Positions 21,284-59,568 of a DNA stretch of 64,000 bases are shown here, one piece after another (position 1 is the first letter of the stretch; each line of letters opens with the position of its first letter). Source of the stretch: Derxia lacustris. GTDB taxonomy: Bacteria > Pseudomonadota > Gammaproteobacteria > Burkholderiales > Burkholderiaceae_E. The stretch lies in contig NZ_MUHU01000008.1 in NCBI RefSeq assembly GCF_002105195.1, positions 248,001 through 312,000 on the forward strand, in the 5' to 3' direction. A program made the position numbers and the translations under genes. The notes under the pieces are model-generated. The model made no database searches. It was not told the DNA's origin and saw only the letters and a list, made by a program, of their open reading frames with translations.

Positions 21284-21844
21284 TCAGGCGGGGAGGGCGC
21301 CCATGCAATCGCGCACGGTGATGCAGCCCCGGTCGAAGTCCACATCCTTCACGCGCAGCCGCAGGCATTCGAGCAGCCGCATGCCCGTGCCGTAGAGCAG
21401 GCGCGCAGCCAGCGTCGCGGGCGCGGCGGGCGGCATCGCCCCGAACAATCGCGCCAGTTCCTGCTGCGACAGCACCACCGGCAGCCGCTCGCGAGCCTTG
21501 GGGCGGCCGATGTCATCGAGCCAGGGCAGGTCAACGCCAAGCACCTGCCGATACAGGAACAGCAGCGCCGACAGCGCCTGCCGGTGCGTTGACGCCGATA
21601 CCCCGCGATCTGCCGCCAGATGGGTGAGAAAAGCCTCGACCTCGCCGAGCCCCATCTCCCGCGGATGCCGCAGACCGTGGAAACGCACAAAGGCTTTTTC
21701 CCACAGGCAATAGGCGCGCTCCGTCTTGAGCGAGTAATGCAGATAGCGGATGCGCTCGCGTACCTGGTCGAGCAGGCGCACGGATTGCAGCGGCGGGAGC
21801 GCCGGCACGGCGCGCGGGCGGTTGGGACGGAAAGGGAGCGGCAT
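21284..21844 (-). pseudogene. intI: integron integrase IntI, C-terminally truncated
   Basis: Tyrosine recombinase remnant of 186 residues. The N-terminal SAM-like domain and the start of the catalytic domain are very typical of Int[43 protein letters not shown] and [11 protein letters not shown], which contains the first catalytic Arg (R156). After VKDVDFDRG the similarity stops at about 21306 and the frame ends in CMGALPA. The IntI-specific extra helix and the remaining catalytic residues (His, Arg, Tyr) are gone, so it cannot recombine. Start at 21844 is chosen because the LexA box and promoter lie just upstream; the frame's first ATG at 21889 would be before the likely transcription start. 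Oriented away from the cassettes, as in intact integrons. Confidence 0.9.
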
Positions 21845-21860
21845 GCGGGTGCTGTTGGTG

Positions 21861-21876
21861 CTGTTTTTAAAAACAG
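21861..21876. promoter_or_regulatory. LexA box (SOS operator) of intI
   Basis: CTGTTTTTAAAAACAG is a perfect 16-base palindrome matching the LexA consensus CTGT-N8-ACAG. It lies 16 bases upstream of the chosen intI start and overlaps the -10 region of the promoter proposed on the minus strand. Integrase genes of many integrons are under LexA control in exactly this position, so the site fits both sequence and context. Confidence 0.88.
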
Positions 21877-21902
21877 TACATGGTGCCAACGCATTGAAGC
21901 AA
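21873..21902 (-). promoter_or_regulatory. candidate promoter for intI and dnaE2
   Basis: On the minus strand a -35-like TTGCTT (21902-21897) is followed after 18 bases by a -10-like TACTGT (21878-21873). The -10 shares four bases with the LexA box, so bound LexA would block it. The match to consensus is moderate. Transcription would begin near 21866 and run through the integrase remnant into dnaE2, since no terminator-like hairpin is seen between them. Confidence 0.5.
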
Positions 21903-22151
21903 CAGGGATTTCTGCGACCCGATGGGCGGTGTTATTGCGCAGGGGAGGTTTTATCGCGCACGGTCTGATATGGGCGCGGGATTGATGCTGGGTTTGAAGG
22001 TAGTTTTAGTACTAGGACTGAAATATCCATAGCGGCGAATGGCCGTGTCGAATCAATGGGTTGTGAAGTATGGTGCGGAGTAGGAATCGTGCTTGGCGGC
22101 GTGTTATCAGGCATGGCGTGCACGATAAAACTAGTTGGGGGTCACAAAGCC
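21877..22151. other. leader between intI and first cassette (attI region)
   Basis: About 275 bases without a convincing gene, between the LexA box and the first cassette gene. This is where attI and the cassette promoter lie in working integrons. The recombination junction is seen at its right end. No clear plus-strand promoter was found; TTGAAG at 21994 lacks a good partner. A short frame beginning at 22056 is in phase with the first cassette gene but has no cassette logic, since it would start outside the cassette. Confidence 0.55.
22134..22143 (+). other. attI x attC junction (cassette 1 boundary)
   Basis: GTTGGGGGTC, preceded by AAAACTA, fits the core GTTRRRY cut between G22134 and T22135, and resembles the AAAACAAAGTT end of the attI1 site. 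Its bases complement the R'' end GACGCCCAAC of the first attC at 22728 with one mismatch, as expected for the two ends of one cassette. Confidence 0.65.
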
Positions 22152-22712
22152 ATGATTCGCTTTGCAGCACAGCTTGCGGCGATAGCCTTAGCCGGAATTG
22201 CCAATACTGCCGAAGCACAGGCTGGAAAGCAAATTTTGGGAATTCCTTTTGGTGAACCGCTACGTATGCAGAAGTGTCCGTCCAACACGGAAGCGGCAAA
22301 GGCGCCTTGCTGGATCGACAAGCCATTTATATACAAACCCACGGGCGGAAAACTGGGTTCTGTCCACATTCCAAAACCGGAAAGCAGGCCGGAATGGGCC
22401 GCTCACGCTTGGTTTGAACTATCTCTGGATAGACAAGACAAGGTGCAACAGATCAAAGTGGAAATTTTTGGGCCTGCCGATCGACAGCAAATCGCCAGTT
22501 CCATCAGTCAGCGCTTCGGAAGGCCTACCGAGAATCAACTCGACCGCAGCGATGTATCGTGGGTGAGCTGGTCTACAGCAGAAGGGCGCGTAGAGATGCG
22601 ATGTCAAGAAAAGTGTTGGATCGAGTTCCGAACACCGTCTGAGCAACTCGCAAGAGAGGCTGAAAAGCGAGAACGCGAGAGAGTAAATGAAAATCGCCCC
22701 AAAGCTCCGTAA
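22152..22712 (+). CDS. cassette 1: secreted protein of unknown function
   Basis: Protein of 186 residues beginning 17 bases inside the first cassette. Residues 1-24 form a signal peptide (cleavage near AEAQA). The mature part has four cysteines, two in the segments QKCPS and KAPCWID and two in MRCQEKCWIEF, possibly forming two disulfides, and ends in a charged helix rich in Glu and Arg. No family was recognised. The ATG at 22152 is preferred over the frame's earlier ATG at 22056 because only the former lies within the cassette and starts a signal peptide. Base composition is poorer in GC than the chromosome, as in the other cassettes. Confidence 0.7.
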   Translation: MIRFAAQLAAIALAGIANTAEAQAGKQILGIPFGEPLRMQKCPSNTEAAKAPCWIDKPFIYKPTGGKLGSVHIPKPESRPEWAAHAWFELSLDRQDKVQQIKVEIFGPADRQQIASSISQRFGRPTENQLDRSDVSWVSWSTAEGRVEMRCQEKCWIEFRTPSEQLAREAEKRERERVNENRPKAP

Positions 22713-22727
22713 GCGAAAGCACCCTAT

Positions 22728-22791
22728 GACGCCCAACCCGGCGTTCCAGCGGACCGCCTTCGGCGGCCGCTGAACTAGCACGTTGGGCGTC
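22728..22791 (+). other. attC site 1
   Basis: Begins GACGCCCAAC and ends GTTGGGCGTC, so R'' is GCCCAAC (22731-22737) and R' is GTTGGGC (22782-22788), both matching the RYYYAAC/GTTRRRY consensus and fully complementary. Between them is the imperfect palindrome CAGCGGACCGCC-TTC-GGCGGCCGCTG expected for a folded recombination site. Cut predicted between 22782 and 22783. Confidence 0.92.
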
Positions 22792-22819
22792 AAAAAACCA
22801 TCTACCAACAGGGAGTCAT

Positions 22820-23374
22820 ATGAGTAATCCGCTTAACTTCACTTACGTAGACAACTCCAACGTCTTCATCGAAGGCAGCCGCGCCTCGGCTGTGGCCAAG
22901 AAAATGGCAGGTGCGGAGACGTATGTAGCGGCGATGAATAATCACGTCACCGACAAGTCTTGGCAGCCTGATTATGGTCGATTGCACGAGTTCGTTTGCG
23001 GAGATCGCTCCGAGATTGGGTGTGCGAAACTTTGGGGTTCGCCGCCACCATCGGATACGTTCTGGGACATGGTACGGCGCAAAGGATTCGAAGTAAAAAC
23101 CTACGAGAAAAATTTCGCTGGAAAAGAAAAGAAGGTCGATGTAGCCATTGCCCATCAGATTACGAAAGACGTGTATTCTGGAAAAATCCGCAAAGGCATG
23201 GACGAGGTTACTTTGGTCGCAGGAGATAAGGACTTCGTACCTGTGGTGGAGGATTTGGTAGAAAATGGATACATCGTCCATGTTGTATTCTGGGACAACG
23301 CCGCCCCAGAACTCAAGGCAGCGTGTAGTAAGTTCACAAGCCTGAATCCTTTCCTACCTCACCTCACAAAATGA
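22820..23374 (+). CDS. cassette 2: NYN-domain (PIN-like) nuclease-type protein
   Basis: Protein of 184 residues, the whole of which fits one NYN fold, a branch of the PIN-like metal-dependent RNases (LabA/DUF88 type). Acidic motifs sit where the family has its metal ligands: DNSN at 11-14, KKVDVAIAHQITKD at 104-117 and AGDKDF at 134-139. The final strand pattern GYIVHVVFW is also typical. It would be expected to cleave RNA, though neither activity nor target is shown by sequence. The ribosome binding site GGGAG precedes the ATG by five bases. The stop codon lies inside the next attC. Plausible role as a defence or toxin-like cassette. Confidence 0.82.
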   Translation: MSNPLNFTYVDNSNVFIEGSRASAVAKKMAGAETYVAAMNNHVTDKSWQPDYGRLHEFVCGDRSEIGCAKLWGSPPPSDTFWDMVRRKGFEVKTYEKNFAGKEKKVDVAIAHQITKDVYSGKIRKGMDEVTLVAGDKDFVPVVEDLVENGYIVHVVFWDNAAPELKAACSKFTSLNPFLPHLTK

Positions 23375-23438
23375 CGCCCAACCCGGCGTTCCAGCGGACC
23401 GCCTCCGGCGGCCGCTGAACTTCAACGTTAGAGCGCAC
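23373..23438 (+). other. attC site 2
   Basis: R'' GCCCAAC at 23376-23382 and R' GTTAGAG at 23427-23433. The central part differs from attC site 1 at only a few positions, all close to the apex or the R' side. GACGCCCAAC here complements the start of cassette 2 (GTTGGGCGTC at 22782), and GTTAGAGCGCAC here is the start of cassette 3. Cut predicted between 23427 and 23428. Confidence 0.92.
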
Positions 23439-23476
23439 AGGAAACCACTCGGCATTCTTTAAATAAGGAAAACAAT

Positions 23477-24178
23477 ATGGCTCAATGCACGGCCCCCAGA
23501 TACGGACATCGCACAGCGAGCGGACGCGCGAATTGTCCCGCTTGCGGTGGCGGCGGTTATCGCAGCTTTGGCGGGTACGCTTCCTACTCAACACCGTCTC
23601 GCTCTTATCCTGTAACTAGCAGTGGAGGCGGCGGAATCAGCTCAGGCTCATCTCGTGGCAGTGCGCGGCCGCGCTGGTCGAGGGCCGGATCGTCAGTGGT
23701 GTATACGCCCGCTGAGGTGCGATCTCTTACACCGATTCGAGAAAGCGTTGAAAGACGCTCTTCATTACCTGACCTCCGAGACGTTTTTCTGTGCCACGCC
23801 TGGGACGACCGAAAAGACGCGGCCAAAGAGCTGCATGACCTCCTCGAGTCCAATAACGTCACTGTTTGGTTTAGTGAAAAGGATGTCTTACTCGGCACAA
23901 GCCTTCTGCGCGAAATCGACAAAGGACTTGCAAAGTCTCGCGTAGGCATTGTTCTGGTCACGCCTTCGCTTCTGAAGCGCATCTCTGCAGAGGGCATTGC
24001 CGAAAAAGAACTATCGGCACTGCTGGCACGCGACCTATTGGTTCCAGTAGTCCATAACACTACCTACGAGGCGCTGCGCGACGTCAGTCCCTTGCTTGGG
24101 TCGCGTAGCGGTCTTAGCACTGCCGAAGAGTCAATGGCTGACATCGCGGCCAAGCTCGCCGAGCTGGTTGCTCTGTAG
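23477..24178 (+). CDS. cassette 3: TIR-domain protein with Cys/His N-terminus
   Basis: Protein of 233 residues. The N-terminus has C4, H11, C20 and C23 (GHRTASGRANCPAC), a likely small metal-binding knot, followed by a flexible Ser/Gly/Tyr-rich linker to about residue 75. A TIR domain of the bacterial TIR_2 kind covers about 101-233: first strand DVFLCHAW, BB-loop region FSEKDVLLG, strand VGIVLVTPSLL and helix AEKELSALL, where E178 is the best candidate for the catalytic Glu of NAD-consuming TIRs. Bacterial TIR proteins commonly act in phage defence by making NAD-derived signals or by destroying NAD. AAGGAA precedes the ATG. No partner gene is beside it, so it would act alone or with a distant protein. 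Confidence 0.85.
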   Translation: MAQCTAPRYGHRTASGRANCPACGGGGYRSFGGYASYSTPSRSYPVTSSGGGGISSGSSRGSARPRWSRAGSSVVYTPAEVRSLTPIRESVERRSSLPDLRDVFLCHAWDDRKDAAKELHDLLESNNVTVWFSEKDVLLGTSLLREIDKGLAKSRVGIVLVTPSLLKRISAEGIAEKELSALLARDLLVPVVHNTTYEALRDVSPLLGSRSGLSTAEESMADIAAKLAELVAL

Positions 24179-27329: not shown

Positions 27330-29990
<2,661 letters not shown>

Positions 29991-30024
29991 CAATCCCCCG
30001 CTCAAACCGGACAGGGAGCGGGAG

Positions 30025-30441
30025 ATGAAGAGGCTTTGGCGTGGCGCGGTCGTGGCCGGCTGCTACGTGCTGTCGCTGTACGGCATCGTCGGCGGCGTGG
30101 CGGCGGCGATCCTGCCGGCGCGCGGCGCGACGGCCGTCGCGCTGGCTGGCGCGGTGATGCTGTTTGCCTGGGTGGCCCACATCGTCATGAGCGTGAACTG
30201 GGTGCTCGACCGCCGGCTCGGCCGCTTCCTGCCCATCGGCGGCACGGCGGCGGGACTGTTCGGGCTGCTGTACTGGCCGCTGTCGGGCCTGCTGCGCGAG
30301 CAGTCGCCGGCCTGGGACGCGCTGCGCTTTCTCGGCGTCGAAGCCCTGCTCGTGCTGCCCTGCCTGCTGCTCGCGATCCATCTCGTGCGTTTCCATCTCG
30401 ACCGTCCGGCGCGGCGCGTGAATGGACCGCTCGCTGCTTGA
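30025..30441 (+). CDS. small four-helix membrane protein
   Basis: Protein of 138 residues with about four hydrophobic segments (CYVLSLYGIVGGVAAAIL, ATAVALAGAVMLFAWVAHIV and two more). A strong ribosome binding site, GGGAG twice (30014 and 30020), precedes the ATG. Its end overlaps the next gene by 20 bases. No family was recognised. It starts 34 bases after the kinase gene and is probably co-transcribed with it, which hints at a role in the same signalling unit. Confidence 0.75.
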   Translation: MKRLWRGAVVAGCYVLSLYGIVGGVAAAILPARGATAVALAGAVMLFAWVAHIVMSVNWVLDRRLGRFLPIGGTAAGLFGLLYWPLSGLLREQSPAWDALRFLGVEALLVLPCLLLAIHLVRFHLDRPARRVNGPLAA

Positions 30442-31579
30442 ACCGGTGGTCGTGCCGGCGCTGGCCTTCGTCGGCATCGCGGTCTGGCGCGCGCGCCATC
30501 CGAGGCCGGGCGAGCGCATGCCGGGATGGGGCGCGGCCGCGTGGTGGGCGATCGGGATGGCGATCGCGGTCGCGGTCGGCGTGGCGGCGGTGGGCGCGAT
30601 CCGGTCGAGCGACGGCTGGGCTGCCTTCCTGCCGTTGCTGCTGGCGCTGGGCGCGTATGGCGCCGCGCTCGTCTGTCTGGCGGGCCTGACCTGGGTGGTG
30701 ATCGCGCAGCTGTTCGGCCGCGAGCCGCCGCCGGTCCCGGCCTGGTTCGACGAGGATGACGATGCGCCCGCCGCGCCGCCGCCCGAGCCGATGGCGGCGC
30801 GGCTCGCGCGGCTGCGGCAGCGCTCGAAGGCGCCGTCCCCGTTGGATCGGGGGACGGGCGGCGCGGCGACGGCCGTGGCGGCACCGGGATGGTCCGGGCT
30901 GGCGGGATTGGGATCGGAGCCGAAGGAATCAGCGCTGGCGGTGGCCGGGCCGGACGAGACCTCGGCCATGCCTCGCGCCACCGTCGGTGCGCTTGCGGAC
31001 GGCCCGGCGCCCTCCGCGGGTGCGACGGCCACCGTCGGCGCGCCAGCTGGCCGGACCGTCCGGCCGATGCCCGTCGTCGCCGGCCCGCTCGACCATCTGA
31101 GCTGGTTCGCCGTGCTGGCCACCCTGCTGCTCATGACGATCGGGCTCGGCAAGGGCGTGCTCGATGCGCTGCGCTCGGGCTATCTGCGGCTCGGGCGGCG
31201 ATCGGCGGGGATGCTGTTCAGCCAGAGCCCGGTGCGCTTCGGGCTGACGCTGACGGTGATGGTTGCGTTCGCGGTCGGGCTGCTGCTGCTGTCGATGCTC
31301 ATCTGGCGCGACGGGCCGGCGCTGCTCGCGCAACGCGCGCGCGAGCAGCGCCTGGCGCGCATGAAGGCCGAGTACCGGCGCCGGCCGACCATCACGCTGC
31401 CCGCCGCCCTGCTGCGGCTGGTGCTGGGCGGGCTGGCGATGCTGGCCTTCGCGCCCTTTGCCCGGCTGCTGTCGGCACTCGTCGGGCCGTCGTTCGGCGG
31501 CGGGTTGGCGGGGCTGTGGAACCTCGTCTTCCTGTGCTGGATCGGCCACGGCTTCTGGCGGCTGCGCGGGCGTCGATGA
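30422..31579 (+). CDS. multi-pass membrane protein with central disordered region
   Basis: Protein of 385 residues. Three N-terminal hydrophobic segments are followed by a low-complexity Ala/Pro/Gly/Thr-rich cytoplasmic region (about 105-220) and further hydrophobic segments (VLATLLLMTIGL, LTVMVAFAVGLLLLSMLIW and two near the end). A basic stretch (RAREQRLARMKAEYRRR) sits between the last pairs. No family was recognised. The ATG overlaps the preceding gene by 20 bases, and the stop overlaps the next start (ATGA), so the genes are translationally coupled. Confidence 0.72.
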   Translation: MDRSLLEPVVVPALAFVGIAVWRARHPRPGERMPGWGAAAWWAIGMAIAVAVGVAAVGAIRSSDGWAAFLPLLLALGAYGAALVCLAGLTWVVIAQLFGREPPPVPAWFDEDDDAPAAPPPEPMAARLARLRQRSKAPSPLDRGTGGAATAVAAPGWSGLAGLGSEPKESALAVAGPDETSAMPRATVGALADGPAPSAGATATVGAPAGRTVRPMPVVAGPLDHLSWFAVLATLLLMTIGLGKGVLDALRSGYLRLGRRSAGMLFSQSPVRFGLTLTVMVAFAVGLLLLSMLIWRDGPALLAQRAREQRLARMKAEYRRRPTITLPAALLRLVLGGLAMLAFAPFARLLSALVGPSFGGGLAGLWNLVFLCWIGHGFWRLRGRR

Positions 31580-32559
31580 TCGTCCCCGACCACTGGGCCG
31601 AGGCGCGTCTGCAGCACCGCGCCGGACGCCGCCGCATCACCGTGCGGCGCTTCGGCTGGTCGCAGGTCGATGTCGCCGACGCGCAGGCGATGGCTGACCG
31701 CCGCGCCGCCGAGGCGCTTGCCCGCCTCCTCGCCGGTGACGTTGGTGTCGAGCGCCGCGAGCGCCGTCTCGCCTACAACGGCGCCGACGGCCTGCCGATC
31801 CGCGAGGAGGTGCTGGCGCGCCACGGCGAGGCCGTCATCACGCGCAATGCCTATGGCGCGCGCTGCCTCAACACGCCGCATGCGCTGTTCGCCGACGTGG
31901 ACTTCGCGCCGCGCTTGTCGCGGCGGGCGGTGCTGGCCTGCTGGCTGCTGCTCGCGCTGTCCGGGCTCGCGGCCGGGCTGTGGCTGCGCAGCGCCGGCAC
32001 CGCGATCGCGGCGGTGATCGCCGCGCTGCCGCTCGGGCCGATGCTCGCCAGCCTGCTCACGCGCGCCGGCACCGCGCTCGCCGGTGGGCCGGAGCGGCTT
32101 GCGCGCCATCGCGCGGCGCGCTTCGTGGCCCGGCATCCGGACTGGAACCTGCGGCTCTACCGCACGCCGGCCGGGCTGAGGCTGCTGGCGACGCATCGCG
32201 GCTTCGACGCGCGCGAGGCCGAGGTCGCCGCCTTCTTCGACGCGGTGGGCGCCGATCCGGTCTATCGCCGCATGTGCATGCACCAGCGCTGCTTCCGTGC
32301 GCGGCTCACGGCCAAGCCCTGGCGCGCGGGCATCGCCACGCATCTGCGGCCGCGTCCGGGCGTTTGGCCGGTGGCGGCGGGATTCATGGTCGGCCGCGCC
32401 GAGTGGGTGGCCCGCTACGAGTGGGCGGCGGCGGGCTTCGCGGCCTGCCGATTCGTGAGCGAGATCGGCTCGGGCCGGGTGGACGAGGGCCTGCGCGCGG
32501 TGATCGAACTGCATGACCGCGAAACGCGCGCGCTCGAAACAGACCTGGCACTGGCCTGA
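31576..32559 (+). CDS. conserved-looking protein with one membrane hairpin, unknown function
   Basis: Protein of 327 residues. A soluble N-terminal part (about 1-115, with the segment ITRNAYGARCLNTPHALFADVDF) is followed by a hydrophobic hairpin (about 118-160) and a C-terminal soluble domain with HPDWNLRLYRTPAGLRLLATH and a Cys-containing motif RRMCMHQRCFRARLTAKPWR. The ordered pattern of aromatic and acidic residues suggests an enzyme or nucleotide-binding fold, but I do not recognise the family. It is coupled by ATGA to the gene before it and is part of the kinase-linked operon. Confidence 0.72.
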   Translation: MIVPDHWAEARLQHRAGRRRITVRRFGWSQVDVADAQAMADRRAAEALARLLAGDVGVERRERRLAYNGADGLPIREEVLARHGEAVITRNAYGARCLNTPHALFADVDFAPRLSRRAVLACWLLLALSGLAAGLWLRSAGTAIAAVIAALPLGPMLASLLTRAGTALAGGPERLARHRAARFVARHPDWNLRLYRTPAGLRLLATHRGFDAREAEVAAFFDAVGADPVYRRMCMHQRCFRARLTAKPWRAGIATHLRPRPGVWPVAAGFMVGRAEWVARYEWAAAGFAACRFVSEIGSGRVDEGLRAVIELHDRETRALETDLALA

Positions 32560-32704
32560 CGCGGCCGCGCGCGGCGGGCCGACCGGACCGGAGGCGGCGG
32601 CGTTGCGCGTGCGCATCGATGACTGGCGCCAGCATTGCGCCGGCCTGTGCGTATCGCGCCGCGACATGATCGAGATCGAGCGCGAGCTGGCGCGCGAGCC
32701 CTGA
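32513..32704 (+). CDS. possible small protein (63 residues)
   Basis: Short frame that overlaps the previous gene by 47 bases and fills the gap up to 32704. The second half (VRIDDWRQHCAGLCVSRRDMIEIERELAREP, read in parts as VRIDDWRQH and DMIEIERELAREP) looks like real protein with an amphipathic helix. No ribosome binding site is obvious and no family is recognised, so this is a weak call. Confidence 0.42.
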   Translation: MTAKRARSKQTWHWPDAAARGGPTGPEAAALRVRIDDWRQHCAGLCVSRRDMIEIERELAREP

Positions 32705-32746
32705 AAGCCTCGTCCGGCTTGTTGCCCGTCGGGTGCGTTCTCGCCT

Positions 32747-32938
32747 TCAGGTCTTGCGCGCGCAGCTGTTGATGCCGAACGGCAGATACACCGGGCAGAA
32801 GCGGAACAGCCCGGTGGCGAGCGGCACGACGCCGATCCAGCCCCACACGCCGATCACGCCCGCGAGCGTGAGGCCGATGAGGACGAGGCCCGCGACGATG
32901 CGCAGGATGCGGTCGATGCCGCCGACGTTGCTGGTCAT
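32747..32938 (-). CDS. DUF2892 (YgaP-like) inner membrane protein
   Basis: Protein of 63 residues with two membrane helices joined by a short turn, and a C-terminal part reading CPVYLPFGINSC, which fits the DUF2892 family found as the membrane domain of YgaP rhodaneses and as a stand-alone gene in sulfur loci. The ribosome binding site AAGGAG precedes the start on the minus strand and excludes the longer frame from 33067. It lies 52 bases after the MBL hydrolase gene and belongs to the same persulfide-handling operon. Confidence 0.85.
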   Translation of the reverse strand: MTSNVGGIDRILRIVAGLVLIGLTLAGVIGVWGWIGVVPLATGLFRFCPVYLPFGINSCARKT

Positions 32939-32990
32939 GAGGTTCTCCTTGATGAAGTGGGTGAGGCGGTGGCCTCGGGCGCGCGCCGCG

Positions 32991-33884
32991 TCAGAACGCG
33001 TCGAGCGGCAGCTTGAGATAGCGCCGGCCGTCGTCCTCGGGCGGCGGCAGTTCGCCGGCGCGCACATTCACCTGCACCGACGGCAGCAGCAGGGTCGGCA
33101 GGTCGAGCGTGGCGTCGCGCGCGCGGCGCAGCTGCACGAAGGCGGCTTCATCGATGCCGGCATGCAGATGCAGGTTGCGCGCGCGCTGTTCGGCCACGCT
33201 GTGCCAGGCCTGGGGCGCGCGGTCGTCGGGCGGATAGTCGTGGCACAGATAGAGCCGGGTGGCGGCCGGCAGCGCCAGCAGCCGCTGCGCCGAGCGGTAG
33301 AGCATGCGCGCATCGCCGCCCGGAAAGTCGCAGCGCGCGCTGCCCACGTCGGGCGCGAACAGCGTGTCGCCGATGAACACCGCGTCGAACGGCGCGGCGG
33401 CATCGGCGGCGATGCAGTCGCGCACCCGGTAGCCGGCGTCGGCCGGCGTGTGGCCGTGCAGCGCCAGCGCCTCGATGCGGCTGGCGCCGAGCTCGATGGC
33501 ATCGCCTTCGTCGAGCACGCGGTCGAACTGGCTGCCGTCGGTGGCAAAGCCCGGCTCCAGGTTGAACAGCCGCTTGAACGTGGCCTGCACCGCGCCGATG
33601 CCGGCGCCGATGGCGGTGCGCCCGCCGCGCTGCGCCTTGAGCCAGCCGGCGGCCGACAGGTGATCGGCATGGGCATGGGTTTCGAGCAGCCAGTCGAGCG
33701 TGAGCGCCTCGCGGTCGAGCAGGTCGAGCACGGCCTGGGCCGAGCGATGCGCGATGCGGCCCGATTTGGCGTCGAAGTCGAGCACCGGATCGATGACGGC
33801 GGCGCGGCGCGTGGCCAGGTCGGCCAGTACATGGGTCCAGGTGCCGGTGGCGGCGTCGAACAGGCTGTGGATGTGGGCGGTCAT
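32991..33884 (-). CDS. MBL-fold hydrolase, persulfide dioxygenase-like (Blh type)
   Basis: Metallo-beta-lactamase-fold protein of 297 residues. The metal-binding motif is HAHADH (preceded by LLETH); further ligands are in ALHGHTP, IGDTLF and LCHDYPP, as in ETHE1/Blh proteins that oxidise glutathione persulfide to sulfite. The long C-terminal part (QVNVRAGELPPPEDDGRRYLKLPLDAF, read in parts as NVRAGELPP and YLKLPLDAF) is typical of the Blh branch. ATG 33884 is used; the earlier ATG at 33947 lies in the promoter region. Divergent from the bigR-like gene, whose product probably represses it. Confidence 0.88.
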   Translation of the reverse strand: MTAHIHSLFDAATGTWTHVLADLATRRAAVIDPVLDFDAKSGRIAHRSAQAVLDLLDREALTLDWLLETHAHADHLSAAGWLKAQRGGRTAIGAGIGAVQATFKRLFNLEPGFATDGSQFDRVLDEGDAIELGASRIEALALHGHTPADAGYRVRDCIAADAAAPFDAVFIGDTLFAPDVGSARCDFPGGDARMLYRSAQRLLALPAATRLYLCHDYPPDDRAPQAWHSVAEQRARNLHLHAGIDEAAFVQLRRARDATLDLPTLLLPSVQVNVRAGELPPPEDDGRRYLKLPLDAF

Positions 33885-33976
33885 CGGCAATTCACTCGGC
33901 GGCGGATTGGCTTTAGTATTTAACCAAGTACGCAAATAAGCAAACATTCATGCCGCCGCGGCGGCCGGGTTCATCC
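33885..33976. promoter_or_regulatory. bidirectional promoter/operator of the persulfide locus
   Basis: The 92 bases between the divergent MBL hydrolase and ArsR-type genes contain an AT-rich core (about 33911-33948) that stands out in this GC-rich DNA. It includes TATTT (33917-33921) and AAATA (33934-33938) as a small inverted pair, and possible promoter parts such as TTGGCT at 33907 followed after 16 bases by TACGCA. This is the expected place for the repressor's operator; the exact site cannot be fixed by eye. Confidence 0.5.
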
Positions 33977-51577: not shown

Positions 51578-52375
51578 TCAGTCGAAGGGCAGGCCGATCA
51601 GCGCCTTGAACACGATCTTGTCGTCGCCACCGCGCCAGCCCCGGCCGATGCCGGTGTGGAAGGTGAAGCCCGAGGCGGTCGCCCATTCGGCCACCGCATA
51701 GGTGACCTGGGCCGAGCCCTCGGCAAAGCCGGGCCGGCGGACCGGCCCGAGCTGGGCGAAGTGCTCCACGCCCAGCGCCAGCTCGCTGCCCCAGGTGCGC
51801 ATCAGCTTGCCGAACAGGTCGAGGCTCATCGGCTCGTCGAGCGTGCCGCCGCGGCTGGCCGGCCGGTTGAGGATGGGATTGACCGCCAGCAGCCAGTCGC
51901 GGTTGCGCAGGCCGACGATGCCGCGCAGCTCGGCCACCAGCCGGCTTTCCGACAACCGGTGCGCGAGCCAGCTCAGCTCGTAGTTGGCGCCGTAGAAGCC
52001 GCTCAGCTCGTCGTCGAGCTGGCGCACCTGCAGATTGGTCAGGCGCAGCTTCAGGCCGTCCACATGGGCCCGATGCGTGTTGCGGTCGAACGAGAACGGC
52101 ACATGGATGCCGAGATTCCAGTCGGGCGCGATGCCGATGGCGGTCTCGGGCATGGCGCGCAGCACGCGGTTGGGCGCCTGCTCGCCGGGGTACTCGGGCA
52201 CGCGGCGGCTGCGGTTGACGTAGTTGAGATGCAGCTGATGCGAGACCTCGCCCGGCGCCTCGAACTCGTCGGTGAAGACGGTGATCTCTTCCGGCGCGGC
52301 GCGGGCGCCGTGCAGCGGACCGAGCAGGGCGGCGGCCAGGGCGGCCAGGGCGGCCCGGCGCAGCGCCGGCCTCAT
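51578..52375 (-). CDS. outer-membrane-type protein of unknown function
   Basis: Protein of 265 residues with a signal peptide (to [11 protein letters not shown]) and a body of alternating hydrophobic and polar residues with many aromatics, as in small beta-barrels ([40 protein letters not shown]). It ends in IGLPFD, not in the usual terminal Phe. No family was recognised with certainty. Its ATG overlaps the stop of the chemotaxis receptor gene upstream by four bases, so the two are made together, which is odd for a receptor. Confidence 0.72.
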
Positions 52376-53931
52376 GACTGCACCGCCACGGCAGCGCCGA
52401 CGCGGAACACGCTGAAGGTGTCGACCAGCCGCCGGGCCTGGTTCGCCAGCTCGGCGGTGGCGTCGGCGGTCAGCTCGACCAGCTGCGAATTGGCCGAGGT
52501 GCTGCGGTCCACCTCGCAGACCTTGTCGTGGACCATGCCGATGCCCACGCTCTGCTCGGCGGCGGCCACGGTGATCTCGTGGATGGTCTCGGTCACCTCG
52601 CGCACGCTGGCGACGATCTCGTTCATGGTCTGGCCGGCGTCGCTCACATAGCGCCCGCCGGTCACGATCCTGTCCACGCTCGACGCGATCAGCTGCTTGA
52701 TCTCGCTGGCCGCCAGCGAGCTGCGCTGGGCCAGGCTGCGCACCTCGCTGGCCACCACGGCAAAGCCGCGGCCTTCGGGGCCGGCGCGGGCCGCCTCGAC
52801 CGCCGCATTGAGCGCCAGGATGTTGGTCTGGAAGGCGATGCCGTCGATGACGCCGATGATGTCGTTGATCTTGCGCGAGGCGCCGTCGATCTCGGCCATG
52901 GTGGTGACGACCTGGGCCACGGTCGTGCCGCCGCGTACCGCCACCGCGCTGGCGGCGCGCACCAGCTGGTCGGCGCGGCGGGCCGATTCGGCGCTGTGGC
53001 CGGCGGTCGCGTTGATCTGGTCGACGCAGGCGGCGGCCGAGCGCAGGTCGCCGGCGGTCTGCTCGGTGCGCTGGCTCAGGTCGGTATTGCCGGCGGCGAT
53101 CTGGGCGCTGGCGGCGGCGATCTCCTGCGCCACCTGCTGCGCCTCGCCGATCAGCTGCGCCAACCGGTCGAGAAAGCGGTTGACCAGCCGCGACACCTCG
53201 CCGAACTCGGCCGGCAGCGCCGGCATGCGCAGCGCCAGATTGCCGTCGTCGGCATTGAGGTGCCGGAGCGCGGCCGACATGCTGGCCAGCGGCCGGGCGA
53301 CGGTCAGGATCGCCCAGGTGCAGACCGCCGCCAGCAGGCTCAGCCCGGCGATCAGCGCGACGGTCATCAGCTGGCCGGCCGAGCGGTTGAACTCGCGCGC
53401 CTGGGCCTGCGTGGCATCGGCGTCCTGCTCGATGGCTTCGGAGGTGGCGCCGAGCGTCACGGCCAGCTCGTCGAACACGGTCTGGAAGCGGGCCAGCGGC
53501 GCCTGGGCACCGGCCGGATCGGCGCCGATGGCGGCCACCGTGGCGCGCGCCGATTCGGCATAGCGCGCCACGCTCTGGCGGGTGGTGTCGATCTTGGCGT
53601 GCAGCGCCGGGCCGGCGGCGGCGCGCGCGGCGACCAGCGCCGCGTCGAGGTCGGCGAGGTCGCGCTTGAGGTCGGCGTCGGCGCTGGCCGCCGCCGCGCG
53701 GTCGCCGGCCTGATAGGCCATGGCGGCGCGCAGCACCTCGGCGCGGACCGCGTCATGGGCCATGTCGGCATTGGTGGCCAGCCGGACCGAGCTGACGCTG
53801 TGCTCGAAGGCCTCGCTGTTGGCACGCGCCTGCTGCAAGCCGTGAAGGCCGGCGCCGCCCAGCAGCGCCGCGATCGACGCACCGGTGACGGCCAGCAGAA
53901 AAAGGCGCGTGCGGATGCTCATCTGGCGCAT
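52372..53931 (-). CDS. methyl-accepting chemotaxis protein
   Basis: Receptor of 519 residues. Membrane helix 1 (about 10-30) and helix 2 (about 187-210, [22 protein letters not shown]) flank a helical periplasmic domain of about 155 residues, probably a four-helix bundle. A HAMP region follows, then the signalling domain with the hairpin tip [20 protein letters not shown] and the conserved [20 protein letters not shown]. There is no C-terminal NWETF-like pentapeptide, so CheR/CheB would not dock there. No chemotaxis genes are nearby. It is coupled to the outer-membrane-type protein downstream. Confidence 0.92.
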
Positions 53932-54138: not shown

Positions 54139-57100
54139 TCAGAGGCTGTCGTCGCCGGCGCCCGACTCGGCGACCAGCGTCGCCTCGAGCGAGCGGAAGC
54201 CGCGCACGCAGGAGAAGTACTCGGCCGCGTTGGCGATCTCGAAGCCGACCCGGATCAGGTCGCGCGCCTGCTGATGCTCGTCGCGCCGCTTGTAGATCTG
54301 CGCCAGCGTGAGCAGCGCCTTGGCCTTGTAGAGCTTGAGGTCGTAGAGCGCGGCGATCTCGGCGCTGGTCACCGCCTCGCGCGCCGAGAGCTTGGTTTCG
54401 CCCTGGCTCAGCAGCACGCAGGCGCGCACCAGATGGGCGGCGGCCTGGATGCGCGGCATGCCCATGTCGAGCCCGTACTGCTCGACCACCTCGATCTGGC
54501 GATAGGACTCGGTATGCGACCGCGACGGATCGGCCGCCGTCCGCAGCCGCACCAGCGTGAGCAGGGCCAGCATGTGCACATCCTCATGGCCGCCGCGCTG
54601 GGCCACGGCGATCGCTTCCAGCGCCAGCGCGATCGCCTCCTGGCCCCGGTCGGGCGCCAGCGCCATGTGCAGATCGGCCTGGCACTTGAGCACGAAGGCG
54701 GTGGCGCGCGACCGGTTGTGCTTGCGGAAGCCCGCCAGCGCGGTCTCGTAGCGCCGCGCGGCCGAGTGGTATTCGCCGCCCAGATGCTCGATCAGGCCGA
54801 GGTGGAACTCGGCGATCAGGCGCGGCACCGGATGCTCGTCATGCCGGCGCGCGATGTCCTTGAGCAGCTGGACCGCCGAATGCGCGCGGCCGCGCTCGAT
54901 GCGCACCAGCGCCAGTTGCAGCAGCAGCCGGACATGCAGCGGACCGGTGTCGTCGCATTCGATGCCGCGCACCGCGCGCAAGGCCAGGTTGAGCAGCGCT
55001 TCGGCGTCTTCCAGCTTGCCCTGGGTCAGGCTCATCACGCCGCATTCGGCATACAGCCAGACCAGTTCGCCGCGATGGAAGAAGCCGCTGCCGCCGGCTT
55101 GCGGCTGGGCGTCCTGCAGGGTCTGGGCGCGATGGGTGATCCAGCGGATCAGCCGGCGGTATTCCTCCATGTGGCCGATCGGCTGCTGGCGATCCGAGGA
55201 ATGCGTCTGCGCCGCGATGTGCGACAGCACGCCGACCGAATAGGTCGAGCGCGCCACGAAGTAGGCGGCGCGCAGGGCCTGGAATTCGCGCAGCCGGTCG
55301 CGTCCGGGGGGCGCGACCGCGATGCCGTCGTCGGCCGGCGCGTCGTCGTCGTCCTTCGGCGGATCGACCCAGGCATTGGCATAGCCGGGCGCGAGCGCGT
55401 AGCGGCTGAGCGACTTGATGAGCCGGCGGATCTTGCGGTGCGCATCGGTCGACAGCGTCGGGATTTCGTCGGGCTGGGAGGCGTAGAGCGAGGTCGTGAA
55501 CTGATCCCACTCGATGCCCTCGATGTCGCGCCCGCCCATCATGCGGATGAAGTGGCGCTGGATCATGCGATGCACCGTGTAGCGCGGCGGCTGGTCGTCG
55601 TCCGGCGCGATGGGGTCTCCCACATGACGGCGCCGGGTGCCGGCGCCGCCGAGCTGGCGCGGCGCCAGCCGGAGCGCAAGACAGCGGTGGACCGCGATCT
55701 CGGTCATCGCGCCGATCAGGGCGGTCAGCTTTTGCTCGATCTTTTCATCGCCGCGACCGTAGCCGGCCGGCGCGGCTCGGAGCTGGCGCAGCCACTCGAG
55801 CGCAAGCGTGCGGATCGCCGGGCACTGGTCGAGCACCGCGACTTCGACCGGATGCGAGAACACCGACAGATGCCAGAGGATTTCCTCGGTCAGTCGCCAG
55901 CTGATGCGGATCGGCCGGCCGGAAGCGGGCGCGAGCCGCTGGCGCTCTTCCGCCGTGAGCCGCGGGTCGAGCCAGTGGGTCAGGATGGCGCCGCATTCGC
56001 CGCCCAGCAGCCAGGCTTCATTGCGCTGATGCAGCAGGGCCCAGCGGTCGTGCACATGGTGGATGGCGACGGCTGGCGTGCGTTCATGGGTGCGCGCGGC
56101 GAGCGTGACGGCGGTGGTGTCGAGCCAGCCGACCAGCCGGGCGTCGGCGCGGTCGGCGGTGTCGGAACTGCCCGCGCATTCCTCGGCGGCCAGCGCCAGC
56201 AGCAGCGTGAGCGCGATGCGGTTGCCGGCGACCGCGTGATGCAGCTGCACCAGCTTCCGATCGATCTCGCCGTCCGGCGCGACCGGCCCGATGAAGGCAG
56301 CGGCCACCTCGCGCGCCAGACTGCGCTGCGGCACATGCACATGCACCGCCGGATCGTTGCGGTCGAGCGGCGCAATGCCGCGCCGGACCAGCCTCGGCTC
56401 GCGTTCATAGCGCTCGGCCGTCTCGATGGCGCCGAGGCGACGCAGCGCCTGCGGACCGGCGCCCTCGGCCGGCTGGCCGGACAGCAGCAGGGACTGCGGC
56501 ACATGGCGGTCGTCGCAGAACACCATGAAGTCGATGGGCAGCAGGCGGTAGCGCGGATCGGTCAGGAGCGCCAGCAGGCGGGCCAGCTGGCCGTTCTTGG
56601 GCTGGCCGTCGGCATCGAACAGCACGCCCACGTTGGACAGCACCAGCAGCACGCGCTCGGCGCATTTCTCGCCGGCCCGCCGGCGCTGCCCGTCCTTGAC
56701 CGCCAGCCGGTCGAGCGCCTGTTCGAATCGTCCGAGCAGATTGCCGATGGCCGGACGCGGCTCGGCGGCGAGCTCAGGATCGATGACGCCGGTCAGCACC
56801 TCGACCACGTTCGACACATCGCAGAGGTAGTTGAGGCTGATGAGACCGGTACGCCAGTGGCACTTGCGGCCGCGCGTCGGCGCGAGCAGGTCTTGCAGCG
56901 GCATCAGCAGCGCCTCGGGCCGATGCAGCACCAGCTGGTCGAACATGCTGCCCCGGCCGCTGCCGCGCGGAAACGGCAGCAGCAGCAGGCGCCGGCCGTC
57001 GTTGCGCTGAAAGCCGGCATGGCTGCGCAGGCTGTCGGCGAGCCGGTGCCAGCGCGGATCGTCCACGGCAATGGCGGCGGTCGGGGCCGACTCCACGGCG

Positions 57101-58956
57101 CGGAAGTGCATCCGCTCCGGGAGCCCGGCCTGCGACTGCCCTGCCGCGCATGCGGCGAGTGCCGGCGCCATGTGGCAGTACACCGCGGGCTCGCGGTCGC
57201 CGGCCGCGATCGGCGCGCGCGTGGCGACCGGATCGGCCGGCCTGAGGGTGCGCCGGGCCCAGGTGGACATGAACCGGGCTTCGGTGACGAGACGGGCGCA
57301 GAGAAAGCCGCTCACCACCGAGGAGCTGATCTCGTTGAGCAGCAGCATGAGTTCGCTCGTGCAGTCGCGCGCCTCCTGCGGCCGGTCGATGCACAGATCG
57401 ACGATGGCATTGAACAGCCGGCATTCGGCGTCGATGGCATGGGCTTCCGAGCCCGGCCGGTCGGTGGGCTGACCGTCCATGTGGCGGGGCGCCCGCAGCG
57501 TGAACTTGTCGCGCGTCAGCAGGGGCAGCGGCCCGCTGTCCGCCTTCCACCGCATGAGCGCCTCGAGATGCTTGCGCACCCGCTTGAGCTGGTCGGTGAA
57601 CTGGCAGAGCCAGCTTTCCTTGCCGGCGTTGGCCGGATCGTCGACCTGCGGGCTGTCATGGCCGTAGTGGATGGTGTGGATGCCGTAGCGCACCAGCGCA
57701 TCGATCTTGTCGCTGACCAGCTCGCTCGGCTGCAGGGCCGCGGGCATCAGCGCCACGCCCAGCCGGTCGGTGCGGCGTGGCGCAAAGCTCATGAACTCGC
57801 GCAGCGGCCGCAGCACGTCGTCCTCCGAGATGCCGGAGCCGATGTAGAGCAGGGGATTGGCGCCGAACAGCGTGCGGATGGCGTTGTCGAGCAGATCGCG
57901 GCGCTGAGAAGGCCGCAGATAGCGCTCCTGGTAGTCGCGCTCGGACGCGATGATGGTTCGCGGCTCGTCGATGGCGCCGTGCAGGTGCATCACCATCGCA
58001 TGCCGGCGCCGGCCTTCGAGCGCGAAGGCGACGGCGCGCCCGGTGTGCTCGGGCGCAAGGCTGAAGCTGTCGTAATGCCGGTCGATCGCATCCTCGGTGG
58101 CGTCGGCGGGCGTGCCGGCAGCTGGCCGATTCCAGGCGGCGATGCTGAGCGCGCGTTCGATTTCGAGGTCGTAGTTGGTGGTGGCGAAGCGCCGGATCTG
58201 CATGTCGTGCAGCAGTTGCGCGATGGCGGAATCGGCGCGGTTGGAATGCAGCTCGTCGACGGTCCGGGGCTCGGTGTCGGCCTGGCCGGCGATCACGCGC
58301 AGCAGGTGCCGGCGCGCCGGCAGCGGCCCTGGCGGCAGCGCGCCGACGCTGGCCTGCAACGGCGCTTGCAAGCCCTTGCTGCCCAGCCGCTTCCAGGCGG
58401 CTGCCAGTGCGTTGTCGCGATGCGTGCTGTCCTTCAGCAGCCGGTCGTAGATCTCGGCCAGCGACCGGACCTCCCTTGGGTTGCGCTTGTGCAGCGTTTT
58501 TTCGCCCTGGACCGCCAGATCGAGAATGTCGGCGCAGAGCTGGAGCAGCAGCAGCGGCCGCTTGCGCGCATGTTCGGGCAGCGGGTCGGGCGGCTGGCGC
58601 TTGCCGTCGCGCGGGCCGATCACGCCGAGGTCGTGCTCCAGCGTGCGCAGCCGCGAGCCGATGCGCGCATGCGTCTGCTCCAGCCCGAGATAGCGCTCCG
58701 GGTCGATCCTGGCCACTTCCACCAGCGTCTGGCGCACGAGATCGATCCACGAGATGCGGCCATAGGCCATCGACACGCCGGCCCCCAGAAACGCCACCAG
58801 CCGTCCGTTGATCGCGGCGCGCGCGACGATTTCGCGGCCGTGGCGCTCGATGACGACCGGATTGAGCGCGTCGTAGACCTCGTGATCGAGATAGGGCCAG
58901 GTCACCTGCGCTTCGCGGTCAAGCGGCGCGCGGGCGGTCTCGACGGGCTTCGTCAT
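54139..58956 (-). CDS. SIR2-STAND-TPR protein, likely anti-phage NADase
   Basis: Very large protein of 1605 residues. The N-terminal SIR2-like domain (about 40-440) keeps the NAD-site motifs: FLGAGVS at 56-62, TTNYD at 259-263, LHG with H326 at 325-327 and YIGSGISEDD at 371-380. A central STAND-like NTPase (about 640-830) has a degenerate P-loop, PFPRGSGRGS at 661-670, where Arg replaces the usual Lys, a Walker B-like strand RVLLVLSNVGVLFD and a sensor-like FMVFCDDRHVP. The C-terminal third (about 1230-1590) is helical with TPR-like repeats, typical of the sensing part. This order matches defence proteins that bind a phage product and then destroy NAD. A ribosome binding site GAGGA precedes the ATG at 58956. 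No partner genes are present. Confidence 0.8.
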   Translation of the reverse strand: MTKPVETARAPLDREAQVTWPYLDHEVYDALNPVVIERHGREIVARAAINGRLVAFLGAGVSMAYGRISWIDLVRQTLVEVARIDPERYLGLEQTHARIGSRLRTLEHDLGVIGPRDGKRQPPDPLPEHARKRPLLLLQLCADILDLAVQGEKTLHKRNPREVRSLAEIYDRLLKDSTHRDNALAAAWKRLGSKGLQAPLQASVGALPPGPLPARRHLLRVIAGQADTEPRTVDELHSNRADSAIAQLLHDMQIRRFATTNYDLEIERALSIAAWNRPAAGTPADATEDAIDRHYDSFSLAPEHTGRAVAFALEGRRRHAMVMHLHGAIDEPRTIIASERDYQERYLRPSQRRDLLDNAIRTLFGANPLLYIGSGISEDDVLRPLREFMSFAPRRTDRLGVALMPAALQPSELVSDKIDALVRYGIHTIHYGHDSPQVDDPANAGKESWLCQFTDQLKRVRKHLEALMRWKADSGPLPLLTRDKFTLRAPRHMDGQPTDRPGSEAHAIDAECRLFNAIVDLCIDRPQEARDCTSELMLLLNEISSSVVSGFLCARLVTEARFMSTWARRTLRPADPVATRAPIAAGDREPAVYCHMAPALAACAAGQSQAGLPERMHFRAVESAPTAAIAVDDPRWHRLADSLRSHAGFQRNDGRRLLLLPFPRGSGRGSMFDQLVLHRPEALLMPLQDLLAPTRGRKCHWRTGLISLNYLCDVSNVVEVLTGVIDPELAAEPRPAIGNLLGRFEQALDRLAVKDGQRRRAGEKCAERVLLVLSNVGVLFDADGQPKNGQLARLLALLTDPRYRLLPIDFMVFCDDRHVPQSLLLSGQPAEGAGPQALRRLGAIETAERYEREPRLVRRGIAPLDRNDPAVHVHVPQRSLAREVAAAFIGPVAPDGEIDRKLVQLHHAVAGNRIALTLLLALAAEECAGSSDTADRADARLVGWLDTTAVTLAARTHERTPAVAIHHVHDRWALLHQRNEAWLLGGECGAILTHWLDPRLTAEERQRLAPASGRPIRISWRLTEEILWHLSVFSHPVEVAVLDQCPAIRTLALEWLRQLRAAPAGYGRGDEKIEQKLTALIGAMTEIAVHRCLALRLAPRQLGGAGTRRRHVGDPIAPDDDQPPRYTVHRMIQRHFIRMMGGRDIEGIEWDQFTTSLYASQPDEIPTLSTDAHRKIRRLIKSLSRYALAPGYANAWVDPPKDDDDAPADDGIAVAPPGRDRLREFQALRAAYFVARSTYSVGVLSHIAAQTHSSDRQQPIGHMEEYRRLIRWITHRAQTLQDAQPQAGGSGFFHRGELVWLYAECGVMSLTQGKLEDAEALLNLALRAVRGIECDDTGPLHVRLLLQLALVRIERGRAHSAVQLLKDIARRHDEHPVPRLIAEFHLGLIEHLGGEYHSAARRYETALAGFRKHNRSRATAFVLKCQADLHMALAPDRGQEAIALALEAIAVAQRGGHEDVHMLALLTLVRLRTAADPSRSHTESYRQIEVVEQYGLDMGMPRIQAAAHLVRACVLLSQGETKLSAREAVTSAEIAALYDLKLYKAKALLTLAQIYKRRDEHQQARDLIRVGFEIANAAEYFSCVRGFRSLEATLVAESGAGDDSL

Positions 58957-59113: not shown

Positions 59114-59196
59114 CGGGACGTCATCCGAGGGCAGGCTCCTTGCTAAATCCCGCACCCGGCAGCCGCATCCGCGCGCGCCGCCATCCGGGGAGCGAC

Positions 59197-59568
59197 ATGG
59201 AATTGACCGTTTACGACGAGGCCGCCGTCCGCGCCAGGCTGGCGGCCGAGCTGCCGCACTGGACCTACGAAGACGGCTGGATCCGCCGTAAGTACCGTAC
59301 CGAAGGCTGGAAGGGCACGCTGATGGTGGTGAACACCGTCGGCCATCTGGCCGAGGCGGCCTGGCATCACCCCGATCTGGCGGTGAGCTATGCCTTCGTG
59401 ATCGTCAAGCTGGTCACGCACTCGCACAAGGGCGTCACCGAGCGCGACTTCGCGCTGGCCCGCAAGATCGAGGAGGTCGTGCTGTGGCAGCCCGGCCTCG
59501 ACGGCGGCGCGCTCGAAGGCACGCCGGCCGACCAACGTTTCCGATATCTCAAGTACGACGCCGCATGA
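59197..59568 (+). CDS. pterin-4a-carbinolamine dehydratase-like protein
   Basis: Protein of 123 residues of the PCD/DcoH fold: AELPHWTYEDGWIRRKY, the dehydratase motif region NTVGHLAEAAWHHPDLAVSYAFVIVKL (read as AEAAWHHPDLAVSY) with its His pair, and LVTHSHKGVTERDFALA. In methylotrophs a gene of this family (pcd) belongs to the H4MPT gene set and is thought to act in pterin biosynthesis rather than in phenylalanine hydroxylation. GGGGAG precedes the ATG. Its stop overlaps the start of the next gene (ATGA), which places it in the same operon. Confidence 0.88.
   Translation: MELTVYDEAAVRARLAAELPHWTYEDGWIRRKYRTEGWKGTLMVVNTVGHLAEAAWHHPDLAVSYAFVIVKLVTHSHKGVTERDFALARKIEEVVLWQPGLDGGALEGTPADQRFRYLKYDAA

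What the first reader, a model, noticed from the sequence alone, without database searches (positions are those of the whole stretch)
54139..58956. SIR2-STAND-TPR giant protein with an altered P-loop
Seen: intact SIR2 NAD-site motifs, a STAND-like centre with PRGSGRGS in place of a normal GKS/T loop, and a TPR-like C-terminus in one 1605-residue chain. Known: SIR2-STAND (Avs5-type) and related proteins sense phage proteins and then deplete NAD. The Lys-to-Arg change may alter nucleotide use or make activation independent of ATP hydrolysis, which would be a variant of the known scheme. It stands alone next to a metabolic operon.
Basis: partly seen in the sequence, partly recalled or inferred. 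Interest (0 to 1): 0.75.

Follow-up and report, generated by a model that had tools for sequence, protein, structure and literature searches.

The report
NAD-cleaving immune sensor, altered ATP pocket
This gene encodes a single-protein bacterial immune sensor that probably destroys the cell's NAD when a phage is detected, and it belongs to a rare, undescribed family whose ATP-binding switch has lost the residues normally needed to split ATP.

Summary
A 1605-residue ORF (58956-54139, minus strand) carries SIR2 motifs GAGVS 58-62, TTNYD 259-263 and HG 326-327, a central PRGSGRGS at 663-670, and a weak C-terminal TPR array. A model of residues 648-825 (pLDDT 75, pTM 0.72) is a P-loop NTPase of AAA+/ORC/STAND type; its closest solved folds are ORC/Cdc6, then plant NLRs, MalT and Avs3. 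So "SIR2-STAND-TPR" is right. "Altered P-loop" needs reframing. In all ten proteins the P-loop is GxG[K/R]G, adenylate-kinase-like, with Gly in place of the Mg-binding Ser/Thr, and all lack the Walker B acid (Asn, Ser or His instead). Lys-to-Arg occurs in three of ten, probably not by a single origin. The window protein is thus one of the more degenerate members of a family-wide modified NTPase. No member matches nSTAND3, so it is not filed as Avs5, but it most likely works like Avs5: TPR sensing, STAND-driven assembly, SIR2 NAD depletion, with nucleotide as structural ligand rather than fuel. New variant of a known kind; no activity was tested.

The parts
54139..58956 (-). SIR2-STAND-TPR protein, 1605 aa, whole gene
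   Evidence: open frame, homologues with the same start region
57577..58806 (-). SIR2 effector domain, about aa 51-460, with a long family-specific insert between the GAGVS and TTNYD motifs
   Evidence: Pfam SIR2_2 aa 256-408 E=2e-15; PADLOC ThsA aa 49-80 and 231-271; motifs located
58771..58785 (-). GAGVS motif, aa 58-62
58168..58182 (-). TTNYD motif, aa 259-263 (N261, D263)
   Evidence: present as T[TSL]N[YF]D in all ten members
57976..57981 (-). HG motif, H326-G327
   Evidence: present in all ten
56482..57015 (-). P-loop NTPase core, aa 648-825
   Evidence: AlphaFold2 model pLDDT 75, pTM 0.72; ORC/STAND fold matches
56947..56970 (-). PRGSGRGS, aa 663-670, Walker A position with R668 (codon CGG)
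56632..56655 (-). Walker B strand RVLLVLSN, aa 768-775, acid replaced by Ser/Asn
   Evidence: strand 120-127 of the model; alignment
55543..55584 (-). RYTVHRMIQRHFIR, aa 1125-1138, His-Arg motif resembling the winged-helix end of STAND modules
   Evidence: H1129 invariant; the domain name is inference
54142..55026 (-). TPR-like C-terminal array, about aa 1311-1605
   Evidence: family profile matches kinesin light chain TPRs
52372..53931 (-). neighbour: methyl-accepting chemotaxis protein, absent together with the SIR2 gene from this site of the same-genus genome
   Evidence: Pfam MCPsignal, synteny
59203..59568 (+). neighbour: pterin-4a-carbinolamine dehydratase-like gene, first of a tetrahydromethanopterin-linked C1 gene block
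   Evidence: Pfam Pterin_4a; GHMP kinase, Mpt_N and MCH to its right

Best explanation
A single-gene immune receptor. The C-terminal TPR array senses a trigger, most likely a phage protein; the central STAND-type NTPase-fold module then assembles the protein and switches on the N-terminal SIR2 domain, which cleaves NAD and stops the infection by metabolic collapse. In this family the NTPase pocket has the form GxG[K/R]G without the Mg-binding Ser/Thr and without the Walker B acid. I propose that it holds a nucleotide as a structural ligand or occupancy switch and hydrolyses it poorly or not at all; Arg 668 keeps a positive charge for the phosphates. Shown by computation: architecture, intact SIR2 motifs, NTPase fold, family-wide pocket changes. 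Inferred: trigger, assembly, NADase activity, nucleotide binding without hydrolysis, defence role.
For: SIR2_2 match and intact GAGxS, TTNxD and HG motifs; in PaAvs5-1 mutating N110, D112 or E202 abolishes immunity (PMC12931631). NTPase core modelled with fair confidence and matched to ORC2 (Z 10.2, 149 aligned, 3.5 A), Sr35 8.4, MalT 8.3, Avs3 8.1. TPR in most members. Pocket changes in all ten proteins. Lys is replaced only by Arg; one clade of the three Arg proteins is rejected, AU p=0.009. Precedents: PaAvs5 Walker B E410Q still protects (PMC12931631); SAMD9 has Gly in place of the P-loop Lys (PMC5445408); ATPase-defective Rad51-K191R still loads on ssDNA, more slowly, and its filaments are more stable once formed (PMC4538809). 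Patchy spread, plasmid copies next to transposases, absence from near relatives.
Against: No activity, nucleotide or phage data exist. In PaAvs5 the Walker A Lys is required (K363A abrogates immunity; PMC12931631), so R668 might instead mean loss of function. The window gene has no recognised defence neighbour next to it, and other members also sit among housekeeping genes. The tree has long branches and weak inner support. The NTPase model rests on four sequences.
Confidence: 0.6

Rival explanations
1. An ordinary ATP-hydrolysing STAND receptor: a different acidic residue takes over the Walker B role and Arg or Lys serves equally, as in other GKG-type P-loops, so the chemistry is normal.
For: Adenylate kinases transfer phosphate with a GKGT loop (own knowledge). 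Five of nine aligned members have Asp or Glu three residues after the Walker B position.
Against: The window protein has Gly at that place and carries Arg as well; PaAvs5 mutants suggest that Walker B there serves binding rather than hydrolysis (PMC12931631).
Confidence: 0.2
2. A decaying receptor: the pocket is losing function in this lineage and the protein no longer signals.
For: Three replaced pocket residues; R668 at a site where PaAvs5 needs Lys. Relatives with a split gene (Azospirillum sp. B4) and a frameshift (G1517) show that members do break.
Against: 1605-aa open frame with third-position GC 0.896; SIR2 motifs intact; two of the three changes are shared by the whole family; the Methylobacterium copy also has Arg and lies in a 20-kb stretch that is 99.99% identical in two strains.
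Confidence: 0.1
3. Not defence: a signalling protein in which SIR2 acts on a host protein or NAD metabolite in response to a cellular cue, with the TPR array binding a host partner.
For: Sits beside a chemotaxis receptor and a C1 metabolism block; no defence genes next to it.
Against: The neighbours are not conserved across relatives or in the same genus; patchy, partly plasmid-borne spread fits defence genes; the SIR2 half is nearest to ThsA, LmuA, Dsr1 and KomC.
Confidence: 0.1

Closest known systems
Avs5 (AVAST type 5), e.g. PaAvs5-1
   Same: N-terminal SIR2_2 effector with GAGxS and TTNxD, central STAND NTPase, C-terminal helical repeats including TPR, single gene (PMC12931631)
   Different: Avs5 has nSTAND3 (PF20720), Walker A GPAGSGKT and an acidic Walker B residue; here no nSTAND3 match, GxG[K/R]G, no Walker B acid, and a longer insert inside SIR2
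SAMD9 family
   Same: SIR2-like domain, STAND-like P-loop domain with the Walker A Lys replaced (GGT/S), TPR array (PMC5445408)
   Different: SAMD9 has AlbA_2 and OB-fold domains, not detected here, and a variant Sir2; the replacement there is Gly, here Arg, and the SIR2 motifs here are intact
DSR1, DSR2, ThsA, KomC and other SIR2 defence proteins
   Same: related SIR2 domain
   Different: profile matches stop at the SIR2 part; no shared NTPase or TPR region detected
RefSeq 'SIR2 family protein' WP_165090106.1 and WP_162488318.1
   Same: full-length homologues, 28-32% identity
   Different: annotated only by the SIR2 domain; I found no description of the pocket change in the papers searched

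Membership tests
Avs5 (SIR2-nSTAND3) | SIR2_2 effector (PF13289) with NAD motifs | tested here: met
Avs5 (SIR2-nSTAND3) | nSTAND3 domain (PF20720) | tested here: not met
   no match at E up to 0.1 in any of ten family rows; profile comparison with three nSTAND3 proteins aligns only 24 P-loop columns, probability 37%
Avs5 (SIR2-nSTAND3) | Walker A Gx4GK[S/T] | tested here: not met
   PRGSGRGS here; GxG[K/R]G in all members
Avs5 (SIR2-nSTAND3) | acidic Walker B residue | tested here: not met
   Ser/Asn here; Asn, Ser or His in relatives
Avs5 (SIR2-nSTAND3) | C-terminal repeat sensor | tested here: met
   TPR matches
Avs5 (SIR2-nSTAND3) | trigger-dependent NAD hydrolysis and phage immunity | not testable with these tools
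   needs experiment
STAND NTPases (broad) | P-loop NTPase fold of AAA+/ORC-like type | tested here: met
STAND NTPases (broad) | canonical Walker A and B residues | tested here: not met
STAND NTPases (broad) | winged-helix and GxP-type motif after the core | tested here: inconclusive
   a His-Arg motif at 1129-1130 and a GN-R motif near 911 resemble them, but that part of the model had low confidence
SAMD9 family | AlbA_2 and OB-fold domains | tested here: not met
   no such Pfam match
SAMD9 family | P-loop without the Lys | tested here: met
   R668; the residue differs (Arg, not Gly)
DSR1/DSR2 | similarity beyond the SIR2 domain | tested here: not met
   Dsr1 profile matches only aa 291-382

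The most novel reading that the evidence does not exclude
A family of bacterial NAD-depleting immune receptors whose STAND module does not hydrolyse ATP and is set by nucleotide occupancy or by trigger binding alone, with repeated Lys-to-Arg change as the sign of a relaxed or redirected need for catalysis.
Probability: 0.4. Interest if true: 0.7.

Novelty: new variant of a known kind. Interest (0 to 1): 0.5.

Why it matters
Whether STAND immune receptors need ATP hydrolysis or only nucleotide binding is unsettled. A natural family in which the Mg-binding Ser/Thr and the Walker B acid are missing in every member, and Lys has become Arg in what look like separate lineages, gives a ready comparison set, and parallels the Lys-less P-loop of human SAMD9.

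Tried and rejected
Single-change reading of R668: rejected, since the whole family lacks two other pocket residues. Avs5 membership: not filed, nSTAND3 not matched. First structure job on aa 640-1185 gave low confidence (pLDDT 48.6); its matches were nearly all AAA+/ORC/NLR, but I rely on the smaller job. An early reading that relative G1277 had lost its SIR2 TTNYD motif was an alignment error; it has TLNYD, but its GAGxS motif is altered. Phage records, viral contigs and a single-protein scan of genome contigs gave no relatives. Conserved operon partner: none found; neighbours differ between relatives and give no clear defence match. Repeats or a tRNA marking an insertion border: nothing convincing. 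A genome search with PF20720 was too permissive to be useful (weak hits to many AAA proteins in every genome, controls included); only its three strong hits were used, as nSTAND3 examples.

Full report
The ORF is real. The minus-strand frame 58956-54139 gives 1605 residues without a stop. An upstream ATG at 59124 keeps the frame open, but relatives begin near the 58956 start. A long ORF on the other strand is an effect of high GC: third-position GC is 0.896 in the SIR2 frame and 0.751 in the other.

Domains. Pfam SIR2_2 matches residues 256-408 (E=2e-15); TPR_12 is weak here (6e-5, below its cut-off) but found in 8 of 10 family rows. PADLOC profiles of ThsA, LmuA and Dsr1 match only the SIR2 part. 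A family profile against solved structures finds SIR2 proteins (KomC, ThsA, FAM118B) at the N terminus and TPR proteins at the C terminus. GAGVS 58-62, TTNYD 259-263 and HG 326-327 are intact; the last two are present in recognisable form in all ten members.

The centre. No library names the middle region. An AlphaFold2 model of residues 648-825, with three relatives as alignment, has pLDDT 75 and pTM 0.72: strand, P-loop, helix, strand, helices, strand, helix, strand. The solved structures that match best are ORC/Cdc6 proteins (1w5s, Z 10.2, 149 residues, 3.5 A), then Sr35 (8.4), MalT (8.3), Avs3 (8.1) and a plant NLR resistosome (8.0) (Foldseek best E 2e-4). These Z values are moderate, but the list is uniform. 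A separate profile comparison with three nSTAND3 proteins aligns RGSGRGS to PGIGKTT, which places R668 on the Walker Lys and G669 on the Ser/Thr.

Relatives. Full-length homologues: Methylobacterium sp. FF17 plasmid pA, Azospirillum lipoferum 4B plasmid p2, Azospirillum sp. B4 (split in two ORFs), Bradyrhizobium sp. S69, and Methylobacterium sp. DB0501 (same protein as FF17). Besides the window's own genome, none was found in samples of 101 near relatives, 349 genomes of the order and 369 of the class. The named ones are Alphaproteobacteria; the window's host looks betaproteobacterial from its MCH protein (nearest Azoarcus at 68%; inference). This points to horizontal spread.

The pocket across the family. 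P-loops: PRGSGRGS (window), KRGAGRGD, GVGAGKGS, ARGIGKGH, RRGVGKGH, PRGGGKGG, DRGEGKGT, QRGLGKGT, HIGQGRGA, RRGVGKGH. The Ser/Thr after the Lys is Gly in all. The Walker B acid is Ser/Asn in the window protein, and Asn, Ser or His in the others. Lys is Arg in the window protein (CGG), Methylobacterium (AGG) and G1277 (CGC); the three Lys codons checked are AAG. On the tree the three Arg proteins need three changes; holding them as one clade is rejected (AU p=0.009), and so is window plus Methylobacterium (p=0.019), with the caution that branches are long and inner support is weak.

Site. In the same-genus genome G001 the genes on either side are collinear, but the stretch that holds the SIR2 gene and the chemotaxis receptor is replaced by two genes whose products end in PEP-CTERM-like sequences (motif by reading). 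So this is a variable site. To the right lie pterin dehydratase, GHMP kinase, methylene-H4MPT dehydrogenase and MCH genes, which bears out "next to a metabolic operon".

How it probably works. By analogy with Avs5, the repeats sense a phage protein, the centre switches, and SIR2 hydrolyses NAD (PMC12931631). In PaAvs5, Walker A alanine mutants fail, while Walker B E410Q still protects, and the authors infer a role in binding more than in hydrolysis. SAMD9, which that paper finds structurally similar to PaAvs5, has a Lys-less P-loop (PMC5445408). Rad51-K191R, an ATPase-defective Lys-to-Arg mutant, still loads on DNA and is more stable once the filament is made (PMC4538809). These precedents make a binding-only, hydrolysis-poor module the best reading. 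The trigger, assembly, enzyme activity and defence role are inferred.

Verdict. The novelty lies in a family with a modified pocket, not in one Lys-to-Arg change. Interest 0.5.

Noticed in passing
window 21284-24178: Low-GC stretch (53-58% in the 2-kb bins against about 72% around) that looks like an integron remnant: a truncated integrase-like ORF (Phage_int_SAM_4, Phage_integrase), two identical attC-like 20-mers at 22738 and 23383 on either side of a NYN-domain ORF, and a TIR_2-domain ORF at 23477-24178.
   Followed up: partly
window 27690-33888: This 6.2-kb stretch is 97.5% identical to the same-genus genome G001, while the collinear matches to its right are only 78-89% identical: recent exchange or strong conservation.
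   Followed up: no
L003:11754-14228 (+): Directly downstream of the Azospirillum lipoferum 4B homologue is an 824-aa ORF with hydrophobic N-terminal stretches and GVSGGSLG and DGG motifs that read like a patatin-like lipase, though Pfam gives no match.
   Followed up: partly
L004:9926-15523 (+): The Azospirillum sp. B4 homologue is split into two adjacent ORFs, SIR2-NTPase and the C-terminal part, between the NTPase core and the downstream helical region.
   Followed up: no
L031:7624-12399 (+): The relative in G1277 has an altered GAGxS motif (TGALSTKSKG) together with the Arg P-loop, so its SIR2 domain may be inactive.
   Followed up: no
L030:12814-14892 (-): A 692-aa AAA-domain ORF lies just upstream of the G1082 homologue on the same strand; a possible partner in that genome only.
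   Followed up: no
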